From the NCBI GenBank assembly GCA_030684935.1, contig JAUXXH010000016.1:29190-93189 (forward strand): a DNA stretch of 64,000 nucleotides, read 5' to 3'. The notes under the pieces were generated by a model, which saw only the letters and a list, made by a program, of their open reading frames with translations, was not told where the DNA came from and did not search any database. Below, in pieces: positions 9,787-14,380 of this stretch. Within the stretch, counting starts at the first letter, position 1. Every line of letters begins with the position of its first letter. The DNA comes from Pseudolabrys sp. Lineage in GTDB: Bacteria; Pseudomonadota; Alphaproteobacteria; Rhizobiales; Xanthobacteraceae. The position numbers and the translations under genes were made by a program.

Positions 9787-10643
9787 GGGCGGGCCCGCCG
9801 CCGACGAGTTGCGGAAGTATCTCTGACGCCGTTCGAAGCTGGCGGCAGTTCGCCGCTCTCGTTCATCGCCTGGAGTTCGCGCTCCAGCGCCAGCAGCGCG
9901 CGCATGCGGCTGGCGGCGCGTCGCGACGTCCTGGCCAAACCGTGCTCGGTCTTTTCCCAGGCGTGGGGCGCGGTGATGAGTTGAAACAGCGCCCGCCATG
10001 CCGCCAGCGACAGCAGCAGCCAGTGAACCGGCGTCAGGACCAGCACCCAGGCGGTTGAGGTCAGGCCGCGCCGTGACAGGCCGATCCAGCCGAGCAGGGC
10101 CGATGTCAGATATCCGATGACGATATTGGCGCCGTAGATCAGCGCCAGCGCCTTGGCCGTCGTGTTCTGGCTGTCCCACATTCCCGCCTCGCTCACCATC
10201 GCGTGGACAAGACCGGCCATGAACAGCGGATGCACCAGCGCCGCCAGCACGTTGCCGCCAACGACAAGTTGAAAGGTGACAAAGCCCGCCGGGCCCAGAT
10301 CGCGCAGCAGCCGTCGCGGCTGCCGCATGTGCACGCGCCAAGTCTGCATCCAGCCTTTGAACCAGCGGGTGCGCTGGCGAAGCCAGGGGCCGAATTGCGC
10401 CGGCGCTTCTTCATAGGTCGTCGAGGTGATCATGTCCGAGCGATAGCCGAACCGCGCCAGCCGCATACCGAGGTCGGCGTCTTCTGTGACATTCCAGGAG
10501 TCCCAGCCACCGGCCGCGCGCAAGGTCGCGGTGCGAAAGTGGTTGGACGAACCGCCGAGCGGGAGCGGCAGCCGCAGCGTGGCGAGGCCGGGCAGGAACA
10601 CGTCGAACTGGCCGGCATAGTCGGCGGTGAACAAACGTGCGAG
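9783..10643 (-). pseudogene. GT2 glycosyltransferase, 3' fragment (interrupted by transposon)
   Basis: C-terminal half of a membrane GT2 glycosyltransferase. It holds the TEDADLGMRL segment, the QRTRWFKGW motif (QxxRW, typical of processive or XagB-like enzymes) and several transmembrane helices after it. Its 5' half lies at 14373-15544. Removing the transposon plus one 8-bp target copy (3,737 bases) restores one frame, reading SWLAR-LFTADYAG across the joint. The C-terminus was probably also altered by the toxin-antitoxin insertion, because the last codons run through the 35-bp repeat. No start signal precedes this half, so it is presumably not expressed as a working enzyme. Confidence 0.88.
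9797..9831 (+). repeat. 35-bp direct repeat, copy 2
   Basis: Second copy of the SCO 3' end (34/35 identical to 9078-9112), including an in-frame stop. It lies just upstream of the toxin operon promoter and inside the antisense 3' end of the interrupted glycosyltransferase, whose last codons read through it. This suggests that SCO and the glycosyltransferase were once directly convergent here. Confidence 0.85.
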
Positions 10644-10669
10644 CGGCCTTAGGTAGCAAATGCACCAAC
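10636..10669. repeat. Left transposon end: 8-bp target duplication and 26-bp terminal inverted repeat
   Basis: CGTGCGAG at 10636-10643 is the target duplication (second copy 14373-14380). The terminal inverted repeat at 10644-10669 begins CGGCCTTAGGTAGC and is a perfect reverse complement of 14347-14372. An 8-bp duplication is the size known for the IS1595 family. Confidence 0.95.
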
Positions 10670-10779
10670 TATTCTGCCGATATCCCCGGTCTGTTCGGCT
10701 ACCGTTCCCGCTTATAACGAGCGGTGATTGCAATGAAACCCTTCAAAGCGGCTAGGCTTCGCGGCGGCACGGGCCGCGC

Positions 10780-11217
10780 ATGAACGCCAAGGGCAACCAA
10801 TACGCCATTCACGCCTTGAAGGACCGCCGCGCCACGATGGCCGGGGAGATAGCCGCCTTCAAAGAGGCCATCCGGCACCGCGAAGAACAACTGACGCATC
10901 TGGACGCCACGCTGCGGGTTCTGGACCCCTCTTACAGGGTGGACACCATCCCGCCCAAGCGCCTCCGCAGGGTGAAGTTATTCGGGAGCGGGGAGTTGAA
11001 CCGGCTGGTGCTGGACGCGCTGCGGCGCGCGGGCGGCAGGCCCATGACCAACGTGGAAATTGCCGACGCCATCATTACCGCCAAGGGCTACGGGCACGAG
11101 GCGCGGCACGCGCTTATTCGGCGGGTGCGGGCGAACCTGTCCTATCTGCTGCGGGAGCGGAACGCCGTGGTGAAGCAGGGCGACCGGTTGACGGCGCGTT
11201 GGGCGCTGCCGCGCTAG
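10780..11217 (+). CDS. Transposon cargo: coiled-coil plus winged-helix-like hypothetical protein (145 aa)
   Basis: The N-terminal half (about 1-50) is a charged heptad-like helix (MAGEIAAFKEAIRHREEQL) that probably forms a coiled coil. The C-terminal half (about 70-145) looks like a winged-helix DNA-binding fold: ELNRLVLDALRRAGGRPMT, then NVEIADAII as a putative turn, then a basic RRVRANLSYLLRERNAV helix and a short wing. It is the first gene inside the left transposon end. No named family recognised; a DNA-binding or regulatory role is inference. Confidence 0.65.
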   Translation: MNAKGNQYAIHALKDRRATMAGEIAAFKEAIRHREEQLTHLDATLRVLDPSYRVDTIPPKRLRRVKLFGSGELNRLVLDALRRAGGRPMTNVEIADAIITAKGYGHEARHALIRRVRANLSYLLRERNAVVKQGDRLTARWALPR

Positions 11218-11218
11218 C

Positions 11219-11470
11219 CTGTGTCTGCCGCTCTGATTCGCGGGCTGATTCGCCAAATCGCGAGTTATTTGTCGTCTTATGGCGGCAGTTAGTCGTGAAA
11301 AATGGCCGAAGCCACAGGTTTTTCAAGCCGCTAGATGTTGTGGTGCTTTAAGGGACTCGGTCTTGACCGCTTTACTACATCTTGTGCTTTAAGCGTTTAA
11401 ACGGCTCTGTGAATAGCAAGGTTTTGTGTGGTCGGCCGTTGAATTATCCAAAGGAACCGTACATAAAGAA
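11219..11470. other. Non-coding AT-rich spacer upstream of the tRNA-like gene
   Basis: Between the 145-aa gene and the hairpin at 11471 I see no convincing gene. It contains two copies of GTGCTTTAAG about 40 bases apart and a TTGACC box near 11372 that might belong to a promoter for the tRNA-like gene. Confidence 0.4.
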
Positions 11471-11496
11471 ACGCCTCGCCCGTGAGGGCGAGGCGT
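11471..11496. terminator. Perfect 11-bp hairpin, possible bidirectional terminator
   Basis: ACGCCTCGCCC (11471-11481) pairs with GGGCGAGGCGT (11486-11496) around a GTGA tetraloop. It is flanked by AAAGAA on the left and CTTT on the right, so it could end transcription in both directions. It lies 31 bases before the tRNA-like gene and may insulate it from the upstream cargo gene. Confidence 0.6.
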
Positions 11497-11527
11497 CTTT
11501 GACGGCTAGAAGTCTTCAAAGATAGTC

Positions 11528-11618
11528 GGTCCGGTAGCTGAACTGGAAGACTGGCAAGTCGCACAGCACCCGATTTGTAATCGGGAGAATGTTGGTTCGA
11601 GTCCAACCCGGATCGCCA
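11528..11618 (+). tRNA. tRNA-Thr(UGU)-like gene with an enlarged D-loop
   Basis: A full cloverleaf can be drawn: acceptor GGTCCGG (11528-11534) with CCGGATC (11608-11614), discriminator G and encoded CCA to 11618; anticodon arm CCCGA/TCGGG around loop TTTGTAA, anticodon TGT at 11576-11578; five-base variable loop; T arm GTTGG/CCAAC with loop TTCGAGT. The D stem GCTG/CAGC (11537-11540, 11564-11567) encloses 23 bases instead of the usual 7-11. The extra ~15 bases follow the GG pair and can form a mini-hairpin (GACT-GGCA-AGTC). Total length is 91 bases. It may be a functional odd tRNA, a pseudo-tRNA or a tRNA mimic. A GNRA-looped terminator follows immediately. Confidence 0.75.
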
Positions 11619-11624
11619 CTTCTA

Positions 11625-11652
11625 GGGCTCCCTCGTAAGAGGGGGCCCTTTT
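11625..11652 (+). terminator. Rho-independent terminator after the tRNA-like gene
   Basis: A ten-pair stem (GGGCTCCCTC with GAGGGGGCCC, one G-T pair) closed by a GTAA tetraloop and followed by TTTTCTTT. It starts six bases after the encoded CCA, so the tRNA-like RNA appears to be its own transcript. Confidence 0.85.
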
Positions 11653-11764
11653 CTTTAGCGAACAAACGTACCGAATGTCGATTCGCTTTCCGTTAAAGAG
11701 TGTAAGACAATGCCCCTACATTGCAAATACAATGTGAACACATTGCGTGTGCGGGGTGTGGACA

Positions 11765-11962
11765 ATGGCGGAGCCGAAGCCGTTTACAATCAATCTGCCT
11801 CGTCAAGCCCATGAAATGATTGAGGAATTAATTGAGACTGGGTTGTATGGAGCCAATAGAGCCGAGGTTGCCCGCTCCCTTATTCTCGGTCGTCTAGAGC
11901 AACTGGTCGCCGGGCAAACGCTGGTAAGGGCGCGGACAAAGGACAGAGCATCCGCTTCTTAA
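11765..11962 (+). CDS. Transposon cargo: ribbon-helix-helix-like small protein (65 aa)
   Basis: MAEPKPFTINLPRQAHEMIEELIETG gives, in two parts, a basic beta strand (PFTINLP) followed by two helices, the CopG/ribbon-helix-helix layout; the second helix NRAEVARSLILGRLEQLV completes it. Such proteins are DNA-binding repressors or antitoxins. ATG 11765 is preferred to 11747 because it starts directly before the strand. It converges with the transposase gene 12 bases away. No toxin partner is adjacent. Confidence 0.65.
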   Translation: MAEPKPFTINLPRQAHEMIEELIETGLYGANRAEVARSLILGRLEQLVAGQTLVRARTKDRASAS

Positions 11963-11973
11963 ATTGATGGCTA

Positions 11974-12939
11974 TCAAATACGCCGCTGCCAATATCCCTT
12001 CCAGTTCCGGCTGACCTTGTGATTGAGCGCCAGACCAAGTGCGCTATAGGTCAGCGCGCCGTTGTCGAGGCGGCTGTTATTCTCCAGCCAAGCGGCGTGC
12101 GCGGCGTACTGGTGAAGGTACTGCGGCGACACCGCGTGGTGCTGGCCATCCACCATGCGGCGAAGGCGTGAGAAAAACGACTCGGCTTGGTTCGTGCAGC
12201 TTTCACCGTTGCTGTAAGCGAGCGAGTGATTGACGCGGCCAACTTGCCAGCCAGCGTGCAGGGCATCCCAGTGCGAGGCTTCGTCAGCGTGCATCACCGC
12301 CATGCGGTCAACAACGCGCTTGGCGATTTCAACGCCTTCGGCTTCGTGGCGAACCACTGACGTAAGCGTGCGACCCTTGCGCTGGCGCAGCGCGATCACC
12401 ACGCGGCGCTTGCCGGTTTGATGCTGCGCCAAGCGGCGGTCAACGCGGTTTTCAGCCTTATTCGACGGACGGATATGACCTCCGAAATACGCGCCGTCGA
12501 TTTCAACTTCGCCCGTCAGCGAAGCGCCGTTGGTTTCCGACGCGAGGGCTTCACGCAGTTTGTGCGCCAGCACGAAAGCGGTCTTGTGCTGGCAATCCAG
12601 ATCGCGCGCCAACTGCAAGGCGCTGATGCCCTTCGCAGCGTTGGCGATGATGCAGAGCGCGGCCAGCAGATCGACAAACGACATCTTGCGGCTGGCGAGG
12701 ATGGTGCCGGACGTGACCGAGAATTGCTTGCCGCAGGCAGCACACTTGAAGCGGCGGCGCGTGGTGATCTCGTAGGCATCAACACCGCCGCAGTGCGGGC
12801 AGACCGCTTCGCCATCTGTGTTCGGCCAGCGCAGCTTGCGGAAGGTCGTGTAAGCCTTCTCCTCGCCACCGGCATAGATCGCCTTGAGGCTAAGGGTGCG
12901 GGCGGCGGCAGAAAGGAGAAAATGTTGGGCCATTGTCAT
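11974..12939 (-). CDS. IS1595-family transposase (ISXO2-like DDE domain)
   Basis: 321 residues. An N-terminal zinc ribbon has CPHC (47/50) and CAAC (66/69). The ISXO2-like catalytic domain shows EIDGAYFGG (Asp148), HADEASHW (Asp219) and TNQAESFFSRLRR (Asn250/Glu253), giving the DDN/E pattern of the family. It cuts and joins the element ends. It is apparently intact. A second Met at residue 3 is an equally good start. The start region overlaps a palindromic operator (12936-12953), so its expression is probably repressed by a regulator that also controls the divergent DUF6471 gene. Confidence 0.93.
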   Translation of the reverse strand: MTMAQHFLLSAAARTLSLKAIYAGGEEKAYTTFRKLRWPNTDGEAVCPHCGGVDAYEITTRRRFKCAACGKQFSVTSGTILASRKMSFVDLLAALCIIANAAKGISALQLARDLDCQHKTAFVLAHKLREALASETNGASLTGEVEIDGAYFGGHIRPSNKAENRVDRRLAQHQTGKRRVVIALRQRKGRTLTSVVRHEAEGVEIAKRVVDRMAVMHADEASHWDALHAGWQVGRVNHSLAYSNGESCTNQAESFFSRLRRMVDGQHHAVSPQYLHQYAAHAAWLENNSRLDNGALTYSALGLALNHKVSRNWKGYWQRRI

Positions 12940-13021
12940 CGCATCCGGTGATATTGTTCACCAGATATCGCGATGGACTTCCCCACATGCAAGTATTATT
13001 ATCATCGCATCTGATGATAAT
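12936..13021. promoter_or_regulatory. Divergent promoter region with two copies of an 18-bp palindromic operator
   Basis: TCATCGCATCCGGTGATA (12936-12953) and TCATCGCATCTGATGATA (13002-13019) match at 16 of 18 positions and are exactly 66 bases apart. The second copy sits within a perfect inverted repeat (ATTATCATC, six bases, GATGATAAT; 12998-13021) just before the DUF6471 start. The first covers the transposase start codon and overlaps GGTGA-N6-TCACC. One copy per gene suggests joint repression of transposase and regulator, probably by the DUF6471 protein. Confidence 0.65.
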
Positions 13022-13034
13022 TTAGGAGCTCGCC

Positions 13035-13292
13035 GTGGCCAAAAACTCCTTTAAAGACAATCCCTTAACGCAGGAATACGAGGAAAAGGCCAAAAACCTA
13101 CTCAAATCGGAGCTAAAGCGTCGTGGCATCGGCTACCGGGAGCTTTCGGAAAAGTTGGCGGCTCTCGGCTTACAGGAGACGGAACGCAACCTCGCCAACA
13201 AGATCAGCCGTGGCGGCTTTTCGGCGGCTTTCTTTCTCCAATGTCTTGGAGCAATCGGGTGCACCACACTCAGGACGGCCGATGCCGACTAA
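13035..13292 (+). CDS. DUF6471 domain protein, probable small DNA-binding regulator
   Basis: 85 residues beginning at GTG 13035 with AGGAG seven bases upstream. The LKSELKRRGIGYRELSEKLA segment, then ETERNLANKISRGG and FSAAFFLQCLGAIG, are the conserved DUF6471 pattern, which resembles a helix-turn-helix fold. It is divergent from the transposase across a region with duplicated palindromes, so it is a good candidate for the repressor of transposition. That role is inference. Nearly every residue belongs to the domain, so the gene looks complete. Confidence 0.82.
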   Translation: MAKNSFKDNPLTQEYEEKAKNLLKSELKRRGIGYRELSEKLAALGLQETERNLANKISRGGFSAAFFLQCLGAIGCTTLRTADAD

Positions 13293-13295
13293 GTC

Positions 13296-14258
13296 TTATT
13301 CGTCAAACAGGCTCGATTGCTTTGCTATTGGCCCAGCAGGGACAAACCGAATTACCTCCAGAACCTTATAGGACGGTTCGCCCTTCTTTCCCGCGCTATC
13401 AATTTCGGTCGTGATTTCTAGCTTCACTTGGTAGGCGTCCTCGACCATCGCGCCGCCGCGCTCCAAGGCTTCGTGAGCAATGTTCGTCTCAGATATGTCG
13501 GCGTAGATAACATCCTTGCCGAGTCTGAAACGCCAGCTAGGCGCGCGCTCATCATAAACGGGCGAGTAAACGCTGAGCCATGCAGGGGTGACTTCGACTT
13601 CCGGCTCCGTTTCCTTCGTCTCTTCGATACCGACGTTGCATGAAGCAACGATGTGCTCAACGTCGTCGTCCTTTATTTCGTCAACTACAACGTCGCCTTC
13701 CTTAAGTTGAACCGTGTCAAACCCCTCCTGACCAAGAGGCAGAAGGGCGTCCCTGGTGGCCCTTAATGCCTTCGGATTTTCCGCTAGGTTGTAAATATGC
13801 TGGTGCACATGAACTGTGGCGTCGTCGCCCTGTATTCGGACCTCGACGGTCCCGGTTCTGTCAGAGTCAATTAGCGGAGTGACAGACTCAATTTTCCGAC
13901 CGCGCCGCCATTTTAAATACGCCAAGTAAGTCCCGGCGACCGTCGCGGGAGGCCCGCCTAATATACCAACCCACTCAAGGACGTTCTTGGCTGACTGGGC
14001 CTGCTCGGTCGAAAGCAGCTGCCGAACCTGCTCGTACAGGCCAACAACCAGCTCAAAATTAATATTGAAGCATTTATGCTCAAAGTCAGAGACAACCAAC
14101 ACCTTGGCGGTCGACTTCTTGCCGTTAAATTCCGAGTTTGCCTCGCGAAGAAGACGGCCAAAAGCCAGCAGCGCAGGCGCTAGCGTTTGCACGTCGATCG
14201 AATGATCGTCACCGCGATCCTTGCCCAAATAGGCAACGGAAAACTCATGCCTGCTCAT
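13296..14258 (-). CDS. Transposon cargo: 320-aa hypothetical protein with one membrane segment
   Basis: Starts best at ATG 14258 (MSRHEFSVAYLGKDRG). About 130 N-terminal residues look like a mixed alpha/beta domain. A hydrophobic segment near residue 100-125 (WVGILGGPPATVAGTYLAYLKW, given here in part) is followed by a basic RRGRK stop. The rest is a soluble acidic C-terminal domain. No family recognised. The base composition is clearly poorer in GC than the flanks. It ends three bases from the DUF6471 stop, convergent, and begins about 90 bases inside the right transposon end. As cargo it may benefit the host, for example in defence, but nothing in the sequence proves that. Confidence 0.7.
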   Translation of the reverse strand: MSRHEFSVAYLGKDRGDDHSIDVQTLAPALLAFGRLLREANSEFNGKKSTAKVLVVSDFEHKCFNINFELVVGLYEQVRQLLSTEQAQSAKNVLEWVGILGGPPATVAGTYLAYLKWRRGRKIESVTPLIDSDRTGTVEVRIQGDDATVHVHQHIYNLAENPKALRATRDALLPLGQEGFDTVQLKEGDVVVDEIKDDDVEHIVASCNVGIEETKETEPEVEVTPAWLSVYSPVYDERAPSWRFRLGKDVIYADISETNIAHEALERGGAMVEDAYQVKLEITTEIDSAGKKGEPSYKVLEVIRFVPAGPIAKQSSLFDE

Positions 14259-14346
14259 GGCAGGCCCCTTATCATCTTCGGCCAAGAACCACCCTCCCCC
14301 CAGAGTACTGGGGGGATAGTCGCACAACCTAGGGGCGATGGGAACT

Positions 14347-14380
14347 GTTGGTGCATTTGCTACCTAAGGCCGCGTGCGAG
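14347..14380. repeat. Right transposon end: 26-bp terminal inverted repeat and 8-bp target duplication
   Basis: 14347-14372 is the exact reverse complement of the left end. CGTGCGAG at 14373-14380 is the second target copy. On the coding strand the target reads CTCGCACG within the Leu-Ala-Arg codons of the glycosyltransferase. Confidence 0.95.

What the first reader, a model, noticed from the sequence alone, without database searches (positions are those of the whole stretch)
11528..11618. tRNA-Thr(UGU)-like gene with a ~15-base insertion in the D-loop, inside a transposon
Every arm of a tRNA is present with perfect or near-perfect pairing, an encoded CCA and its own terminator. Yet the D-loop is 23 bases and holds a mini-hairpin. 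A mobile element spreading a tRNA or tRNA mimic could support translation of the element's genes, replace a tRNA cleaved by a toxin, or act as a decoy or regulatory RNA.
Basis: partly seen in the sequence, partly recalled or inferred. Interest (0 to 1): 0.8.

Follow-up and report, generated by a model that had tools for sequence, protein, structure and literature searches.

The report
Transposon-borne tRNA with D-loop hairpin
A transposon in this Rhizobiales-type genome carries a tRNA gene with a threonine anticodon and an extra stretch in its D-loop that is predicted to fold into a small hairpin; five other bacterial genomes, one of them in a second transposon of the same family, carry the same odd tRNA, and it likely serves as a spare threonine tRNA that would escape whatever damages the host's own.

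Summary
Confirmed. Window 11528-11618 is a full tRNA cloverleaf (Rfam tRNA, 57.6 bits; cut-off 29) with anticodon UGU, encoded CCA, its own terminator and a 23-base D-loop that can form a 4-bp hairpin. It lies in a 3.7-kb IS1595-family element (10644-14372) with inverted repeats and an 8-bp target duplication. It is not a lone oddity: I found five relatives, one in a second, diverged IS1595 element (Bradyrhizobium), four outside recognisable IS1595 elements. All six keep UGU and a 12-14-base D-loop insert. Acceptor and T stems change by compensating pairs; the D-hairpin does so more weakly (23 of 500 shuffles pair as well). A third, truncated IS1595 element holds an ordinary-length tRNA-Thr(CGU) in the same slot. 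Each of the six carrier genomes already has an ordinary tRNA-Thr(UGU), and sister transposases near which no tRNA was seen use ACA/ACG at least as much, so codon supply is unlikely. The body lacks C2:G71 and A73 of the host's Thr tRNAs and is nearer to Lys/Arg tRNAs. Best reading (0.4): a cargo tRNA that likely stands in for damaged host tRNA-Thr. Mistranslation and decoy stay open. Ten paper searches listed no such tRNA.

The parts
10636..10643 (.). left copy of the 8-bp target duplication CGTGCGAG
   Evidence: sequence, printed
10644..14372 (.). IS1595-family element (3,729 bp) that carries the tRNA
   Evidence: inverted arms, duplication, transposase domains
10780..11217 (+). passenger ORF, 145 aa, function unknown; also present in sister elements
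   Evidence: no Pfam or PHROGs match
11469..11498 (.). strong hairpin just 5' of the tRNA (scan calls it a terminator of the minus strand)
   Evidence: 0 of 200 shuffles of the 75 upstream bases fold as well
11528..11618 (+). tRNA gene, anticodon UGU, CCA encoded
11541..11563 (+). 23-base D-loop
   Evidence: sequence, alignment
11549..11560 (+). predicted D-loop mini-hairpin GACU-GGCA-AGUC
11576..11578 (+). anticodon TGT (UGU)
11624..11649 (+). intrinsic terminator of the tRNA
   Evidence: hairpin shared with L078 and G691
11765..11962 (+). small ORF, 65 aa, ribbon-helix-helix-like by eye only
   Evidence: (no Pfam match over cut-off); weak structure model
11974..12939 (-). IS1595 transposase, 321 aa
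   Evidence: PF12762 125.3 bits and PF12760 59.2 bits
13035..13292 (+). small ORF, 85 aa, unknown
13296..14327 (-). ORF of 343 aa, matches phrog_3243 (unknown function)
14373..14380 (.). right copy of the target duplication CGTGCGAG

Best explanation
This is a tRNA gene with a threonine (UGU) anticodon, carried as cargo by an IS1595-family transposon, and it likely works as a spare threonine tRNA whose predicted D-loop hairpin would keep it out of reach of something that damages or ties up the host's own tRNA-Thr. Shown: the gene, the cloverleaf pairing, the transposon, five relatives with the same anticodon and an insert at the same place, compensating changes in the stems, and an ordinary tRNA-Thr(UGU) in every carrier genome. 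Inferred: that it is transcribed, trimmed, charged with threonine and used by ribosomes. Inferred, and the weakest step: that the hairpin, placed just after the G18-G19 that normally lock the elbow to the T-loop, blocks an enzyme that reads the D-arm or elbow. No such enzyme was identified.
For: Six members keep UGU, the anticodon loop, the variable loop, the T-loop, the D-stem and an insert at one place. 11 of 25 pairs change on both sides; 0 of 500 shuffles reach that. CCA is encoded in 5 of 6. A second IS1595 element, with transposase 60% and 145-aa protein 33% identical to the window's, keeps the same gene order. A third holds a different, ordinary-length tRNA that also has a Thr anticodon, CGU, in that slot. 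Each carrier genome has an ordinary tRNA-Thr(UGU) (own; the five others: full-length matches at 92-97%), so the copy is redundant for decoding. Codon use of carriers is not raised over that of sister elements. By precedent, phages carry spare tRNAs against tRNA-cutting defences (PMC10264068, passages; PMC11555353, listing).
Against: No transcript, charging or target was or could be tested. The anticodon loop is the same as the host's, so an anticodon-loop nuclease might cut both. The body lacks the host Thr tRNAs' C2:G71 in 5 of 6 and A73 in 4 of 6 members, so charging by ThrRS is uncertain. The hairpin taken alone has only moderate support, and L079 and G691 form three pairs. G691 has an A-G mismatch in the acceptor stem and G1245 ends in CCT, scores 32.4 bits with RF00005 and has no clear terminator. 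The third element's CGU tRNA has a U-U in its anticodon stem and its minimum-energy fold is not a cloverleaf. A sister element with the same 25-nt ends has no tRNA, so the tRNA is dispensable. It is rare in the groups searched.
Confidence: 0.4

Rival explanations
1. It is a hybrid tRNA, with a body nearer to arginine or lysine tRNAs and a threonine anticodon, that is charged with the wrong amino acid and makes ribosomes misread ACA codons, as tRNA-ProX does with proline.
For: The window copy has G2-U71, G73 and A after G18-G19, like the host's Arg(UCU); the host's three Thr tRNAs have C2:G71, A73 and U there. Model R1 scores an Arg(UCU) tRNA of another genome at 74.8 bits and the host Thr(UGU) at 49.7. 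tRNA-ProX includes a Thr-anticodon form (PMC10365949, part 1 of 2 read).
Against: The position after G18-G19 and G35 as identity elements are recalled. C35, a main arginine element (recalled), is absent. Pairwise scores put Lys(UUU) first for four members and Arg(UCG) for two. None of the four element proteins scanned with Pfam matches a tRNA synthetase, whereas tRNA-ProX genes lie by a variant synthetase.
Confidence: 0.15
2. It is a tRNA mimic that is not used in decoding: a decoy or sponge for a tRNA-binding enzyme or toxin, or a regulatory RNA of the element, perhaps linked to the small downstream gene.
For: The anticodon arm is nearly unchanging while the acceptor stem is free to vary. The RNA sits between a strong 5' hairpin and a 3' hairpin. 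A small ORF follows the tRNA in the window, L078, L079 and G691, and in L147. Two relatives of the L147 small protein, L160 and L161, follow other structured-looking stretches without a tRNA match.
Against: CCA is encoded in 5 of 6 and the elements for a working tRNA core are kept; two different Thr anticodons (UGU, CGU) in one slot fit decoding better than binding of one anticodon. The small proteins are too diverged to show one partner.
Confidence: 0.22
3. It supplies a tRNA for the element's own codons.
For: ACA plus ACG make 28 of 51 Thr codons in five element ORFs against 61 of 194 in eleven window ORFs outside it (Fisher p 0.003).
Against: ACA alone is not clearly enriched (6 of 51 against 11 of 194, p 0.13). 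Five sister transposases near which no tRNA was seen have 44 of 78, the two carriers 17 of 38. The host has Thr tRNAs UGU, CGU and GGU.
Confidence: 0.08
4. It is a captured host or phage tRNA that hitchhikes without a function.
For: It is rare (3 of 391 genomes, 3 of 265) and a sister element lacks it.
Against: The stems keep pairing by compensating changes over diverged copies, 0 of 500 shuffles as good.
Confidence: 0.12

Closest known systems
Bacterial elongator tRNA (Rfam RF00005), tRNA-Thr(UGU)
   Same: cloverleaf, anticodon UGU, CCA, T-loop and D-loop contacts kept
   Different: 23-25-base D-loop with a predicted hairpin; no C2:G71 or A73 in the window copy, unlike the host's three Thr tRNAs
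IS1595-family insertion sequences
   Same: transposase with PF12760 and PF12762, inverted repeats, 8-bp duplication, passenger ORFs
   Different: one passenger is a tRNA gene; none of my paper searches listed such a case
tRNA-ProX family of Streptomyces (dual-identity tRNAs; PMC10365949, part 1 of 2 read)
   Same: tRNA whose body and anticodon point to different amino acids, here only suggested
   Different: other body, D-loop hairpin, on a transposon, no partner synthetase seen
Phage tRNAs that evade tRNA-targeting defences (PMC10264068, passages; PMC11555353, listing)
   Same: redundant tRNA on a mobile element; proposed role as replacement
   Different: those reported differ from the host in the anticodon loop; here that loop equals the host's and the change is in the D-loop and body

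Membership tests
tRNA (RF00005) | covariance-model score over the curated cut-off | tested here: met
   57.6 bits against 29
tRNA (RF00005) | ordinary D-loop length (8-11 bases named for tRNA-Ser in PMC7609411) | tested here: not met
   23 bases
tRNA-Thr | Thr anticodon | tested here: met
   UGU in 6 of 6
tRNA-Thr | C2:G71 and A73 as in the host's three Thr tRNAs | tested here: not met
   window G2-U71, G73; family 1 of 6 has C2:G71, 2 of 6 A73
tRNA-Thr | charged by ThrRS | not testable with these tools
   needs a charging assay
tRNA-Arg | A20 and G73 (identity role recalled) | tested here: met
   window A after G18-G19 and G73, as in the host's four Arg tRNAs shown
tRNA-Arg | C35 in the anticodon (identity role recalled) | tested here: not met
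   anticodon UGU
IS1595 family | IS1595 zinc ribbon and DDE domain | tested here: met
   PF12760 59.2 bits, PF12762 125.3 bits
IS1595 family | inverted repeats and 8-bp target duplication (length recalled as typical) | tested here: met
   also L079 and L158
tRNA-ProX-like mistranslating tRNA | body of one isotype with the anticodon of another | tested here: inconclusive
   nearest host tRNAs are Lys and Arg, not Thr(UGU), but scores are close
tRNA-ProX-like mistranslating tRNA | variant synthetase gene beside the tRNA | tested here: not met
   four window-element proteins without a synthetase match; the 85-aa ORF was not scanned
phage-type nuclease-evading tRNA | anticodon loop changed against the host isoacceptor | tested here: not met
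   UUUGUAA in both

The most novel reading that the evidence does not exclude
A family of transposon-borne, body-swapped threonine-anticodon tRNAs in which a hairpin grafted into the D-loop, not a change in the anticodon loop, makes the tRNA immune to (or a trap for) a tRNA-targeting toxin or defence nuclease, so that a simple insertion sequence carries its own insurance for translation.
Probability: 0.25. Interest if true: 0.85.

Novelty: new variant of a known kind. Interest (0 to 1): 0.62.

Why it matters
Insertion sequences are usually seen as a transposase plus, at most, protein passengers. A cargo tRNA that keeps an unusual shape across diverged elements points to selection on a tRNA carried by a small transposon. 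If it works as proposed, tRNA-based survival tricks known from phages extend to insertion sequences, and through the D-loop instead of the anticodon loop. It is also a natural tRNA with a structured insert at the elbow, useful for asking which enzymes read that part.

Tried and rejected
Tried without result: the tRNA region against plasmids and phages, no match; relatives of the 145-aa protein in viral contigs, none confirmed; the 145-aa protein against plasmids, 4 records all under 60% identity, not followed; the two small proteins against plasmids, no match; structure model of the window's small protein, mean pLDDT 57, too weak to search. A PADLOC scan failed and was not repeated, so defence-system membership of the element proteins is untested.

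Rejected or set aside: the codon counts used wrong frames for two ORFs and are replaced (my notebook still holds the old figures). 'Derived from tRNA-Arg(UCU)' was my first reading; it is now only a rival because one search puts Lys(UUU) as close. In one search ARAGORN's 'Arg(acg)' of G456 is the family member itself, misread. L152, a tRNA-Thr(UGU) near a weak relative of the 145-aa protein, was set aside: no transposase match, ordinary tRNA. Of 39 genome stretches that matched the pattern I kept three (L073, L078, L079) after reading all; by my reading the rest are assembly gaps, tandem or nested tRNAs, archaeal tRNAs with other inserts, tRNAs broken by an insert, or chance. Of 10 viral stretches none belongs to the family.

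Full report
What is there. At 11528-11618 (+) lies a complete tRNA: RF00005, 57.6 bits against a cut-off of 29, the only Rfam match over its cut-off in the window. It has a 7-bp acceptor stem, 4-bp D-stem, 5-bp anticodon stem with loop UUUGUAA (anticodon UGU), 5-bp T-stem, encoded CCA and a terminator at 11624-11649. The D-loop has 23 bases; 11549-11560 can pair as GACU/AGUC around GGCA. ARAGORN lists nothing there. The tRNA lies in an IS1595-family element: transposase with PF12762 and PF12760, 32-nt arms 94% complementary, duplication CGTGCGAG. The element occurs once in the genome held.

Relatives. A DNA search of 100 related genomes gave five with a match; besides the window's own only G037 holds the tRNA, the other three being tRNA-Arg(UCU). 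A degenerate pattern hit 1 of 397 genomes of the order, the window's own. A looser form of it hit 39 stretches of genome contigs, three of them family members, and 10 viral stretches, none of them a member. A covariance model R1 from four members then hit 3 of 391 genomes of the family-level group, 1 of 61 relatives of G456, that genome itself, 1 of 385 of the class, the window's own, and 3 of 265 of the genus of G691, all at E up to 1e-17. On a small test set the four members scored 109 bits or more and the best other tRNA 74.8, so that threshold may miss diverged members. The draws overlap. In all there are six members: window; L078 (same stretch as G037's L047; titled Rhizobiales bin VK_bin-0224); L073 (G456, titled Proteobacteria bin LL2.bin69), between two ORFs that look to me like ribonucleotide reductase genes; L079 (titled Bradyrhizobium sp. 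RD5-C2; the same stretch as G1312's L136); G691; and G1245, both in the genus of G1312.

Second transposon. L079 lies in another IS1595 element: perfect 23-nt inverted repeats, duplication AGCAATTC, transposase 60% identical to the window's, 145-aa protein 33% identical, and the same order of 145-aa gene, hairpin, tRNA, terminator, small gene and opposing transposase. For the other four members no match to the window's transposase was found in L135, L138, L139 or L073, and no copy of the end motif in L135, L078 or L073. So the tRNA also lives outside recognisable IS1595 elements.

Selection on the fold. Over six sequences 96.7% of 150 pair cells are standard pairs and 11 of 25 pairs have changes on both sides; 0 of 500 shuffles reach either value, and sliding the partners drops pairing to 29-51%. 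Acceptor and T stems carry most of this; the D-stem never varies. The D-hairpin alone pairs in 83.3% of 24 cells with three of four pairs changed on both sides; 23 and 37 of 500 shuffles reach these, 16 the covariation score and 168 the count of further pair types. Shuffles ignore relatedness, so this is moderate support. L078 makes GAUCA/UGAUC around CCCC where the window makes GACU/AGUC; L079 and G691 form three pairs, and the isolated G691 loop is barely stable, -1.6 kcal/mol. Flaws in single members: an A-G mismatch in the G691 acceptor stem; G1245 ends in CCT, has no clear terminator and scores 32.4 bits with RF00005.

Body against anticodon. The host's three Thr tRNAs all have C2:G71, A73 and U after G18-G19. 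The window copy has G2-U71, G73 and A there, as the host's Arg(UCU) does. In the family C2:G71 occurs in 1 of 6 and A73 in 2 of 6. Against the 42 distinct host tRNA sequences, Lys(UUU) scores first for four members and Arg(UCG) for two; Thr(UGU) is in no top six, Thr(CGU) in three. The body is thus not like the host's Thr(UGU); to call it Arg-derived would go too far.

Redundancy and codons. The host has tRNA-Thr UGU, CGU and GGU. The five other carriers have full-length matches to the host Thr(UGU) at 92-97% (anticodon stretch seen). G485, the carrier of the CGU tRNA, matched over 37 bases at 100% and more weakly elsewhere. In five element ORFs ACA makes 6 of 51 Thr codons against 11 of 194 in eleven window ORFs outside (p 0.13). 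ACA plus ACG is higher in the element (28 of 51 against 61 of 194, p 0.003), but five sister transposases near which no tRNA was seen have 44 of 78 and the two carriers 17 of 38. Codon supply is thus not the likely reason.

The slot. Of 193 family-level genomes 15 hold a relative of the 145-aa protein. In the 14 loci besides the window's own, R1 finds no family member; its two matches over 50 bits are ordinary-length tRNAs. One, L147 (G485), is a tRNA-Thr(CGU), 59.4 bits with RF00005, between a 5' hairpin and a terminator. It is followed by a small ORF 40 of 77 residues identical to the one beside the G691 tRNA. That element keeps only the C-terminal part of the transposase. Its tRNA has a U-U in the anticodon stem and does not fold as a cloverleaf by minimum energy. 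A hairpin stands just 5' of the tRNA in all six members and in L147, weakly for G691 (39 of 200 shuffles of its upstream stretch fold as well). L158, a sister element whose 25-nt ends equal the window's and whose duplication is GGGTTTTA, has no tRNA match even at E up to 5. The tRNA is optional cargo.

How it likely works. The kept core, the CCA, the anticodon and the compensated stems argue for a working tRNA. Redundancy, absence of codon need, and two different tRNAs with Thr anticodons in one slot argue for backup of host tRNA-Thr. The altered D-loop and body would then be what sets it apart from the tRNA that is lost. Transcription, charging and the threat it answers are inferred. Rivals are mistranslation, a non-decoding decoy, codon supply and plain hitchhiking.

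Literature. Ten searches listed no report of a tRNA passenger in IS1595 or of a hairpin in a bacterial D-loop, judged by titles and starts of abstracts. In the review PMC7609411 all ten places with 'D-loop' were seen as passages and none describes one. PMC10365949 was read in part 1 of 2, which holds its body text. PMC10264068 was seen in passages: all 10 mycobacteriophage tRNAs targeted by anticodon nucleases carried anticodon-loop mutations. PMC11555353 was seen in the listing only; a search of it for D-loop, D-arm, tRNA-Thr, decoy and mobile gave none. Most subscription papers are not held, so absence is weak evidence.

Noticed in passing
L079:4292-4365 (+): A second tRNA-like RNA in the same Bradyrhizobium IS1595 element: long acceptor stem, T-arm, much reduced D-arm, again between a 5' and a 3' hairpin (predicted fold); below the tRNA cut-off of Rfam.
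   Followed up: partly
L147:971-1046 (+): Ordinary-length tRNA-Thr(CGU) in a truncated IS1595 element of G485, in the same slot.
   Followed up: partly
L160 and L161: Relatives of the L147 small protein that follow other structured-looking stretches, without a tRNA match; L161 also has an IS1595-like layout by my reading.
   Followed up: partly
L093:1007-1106 (-), L098:8918-9006 (-): tRNAs in viral contigs, Arg(UCU)-like and Lys(UUU)-like by anticodon, whose D-loop inserts are predicted to form hairpins.
   Followed up: partly
L135:6806-7432 (+): A weak RiboL-PSP-HEPN match (26.5 bits, cut-off 28.4), a predicted RNase type, within 2 kb of the G691 tRNA and next to a ParA-like gene.
   Followed up: no
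window 11469-11498: The hairpin 5' of the tRNA has its T-run on the minus strand; by eye this holds for the relatives too, which would end antisense transcripts just past the tRNA.
   Followed up: partly
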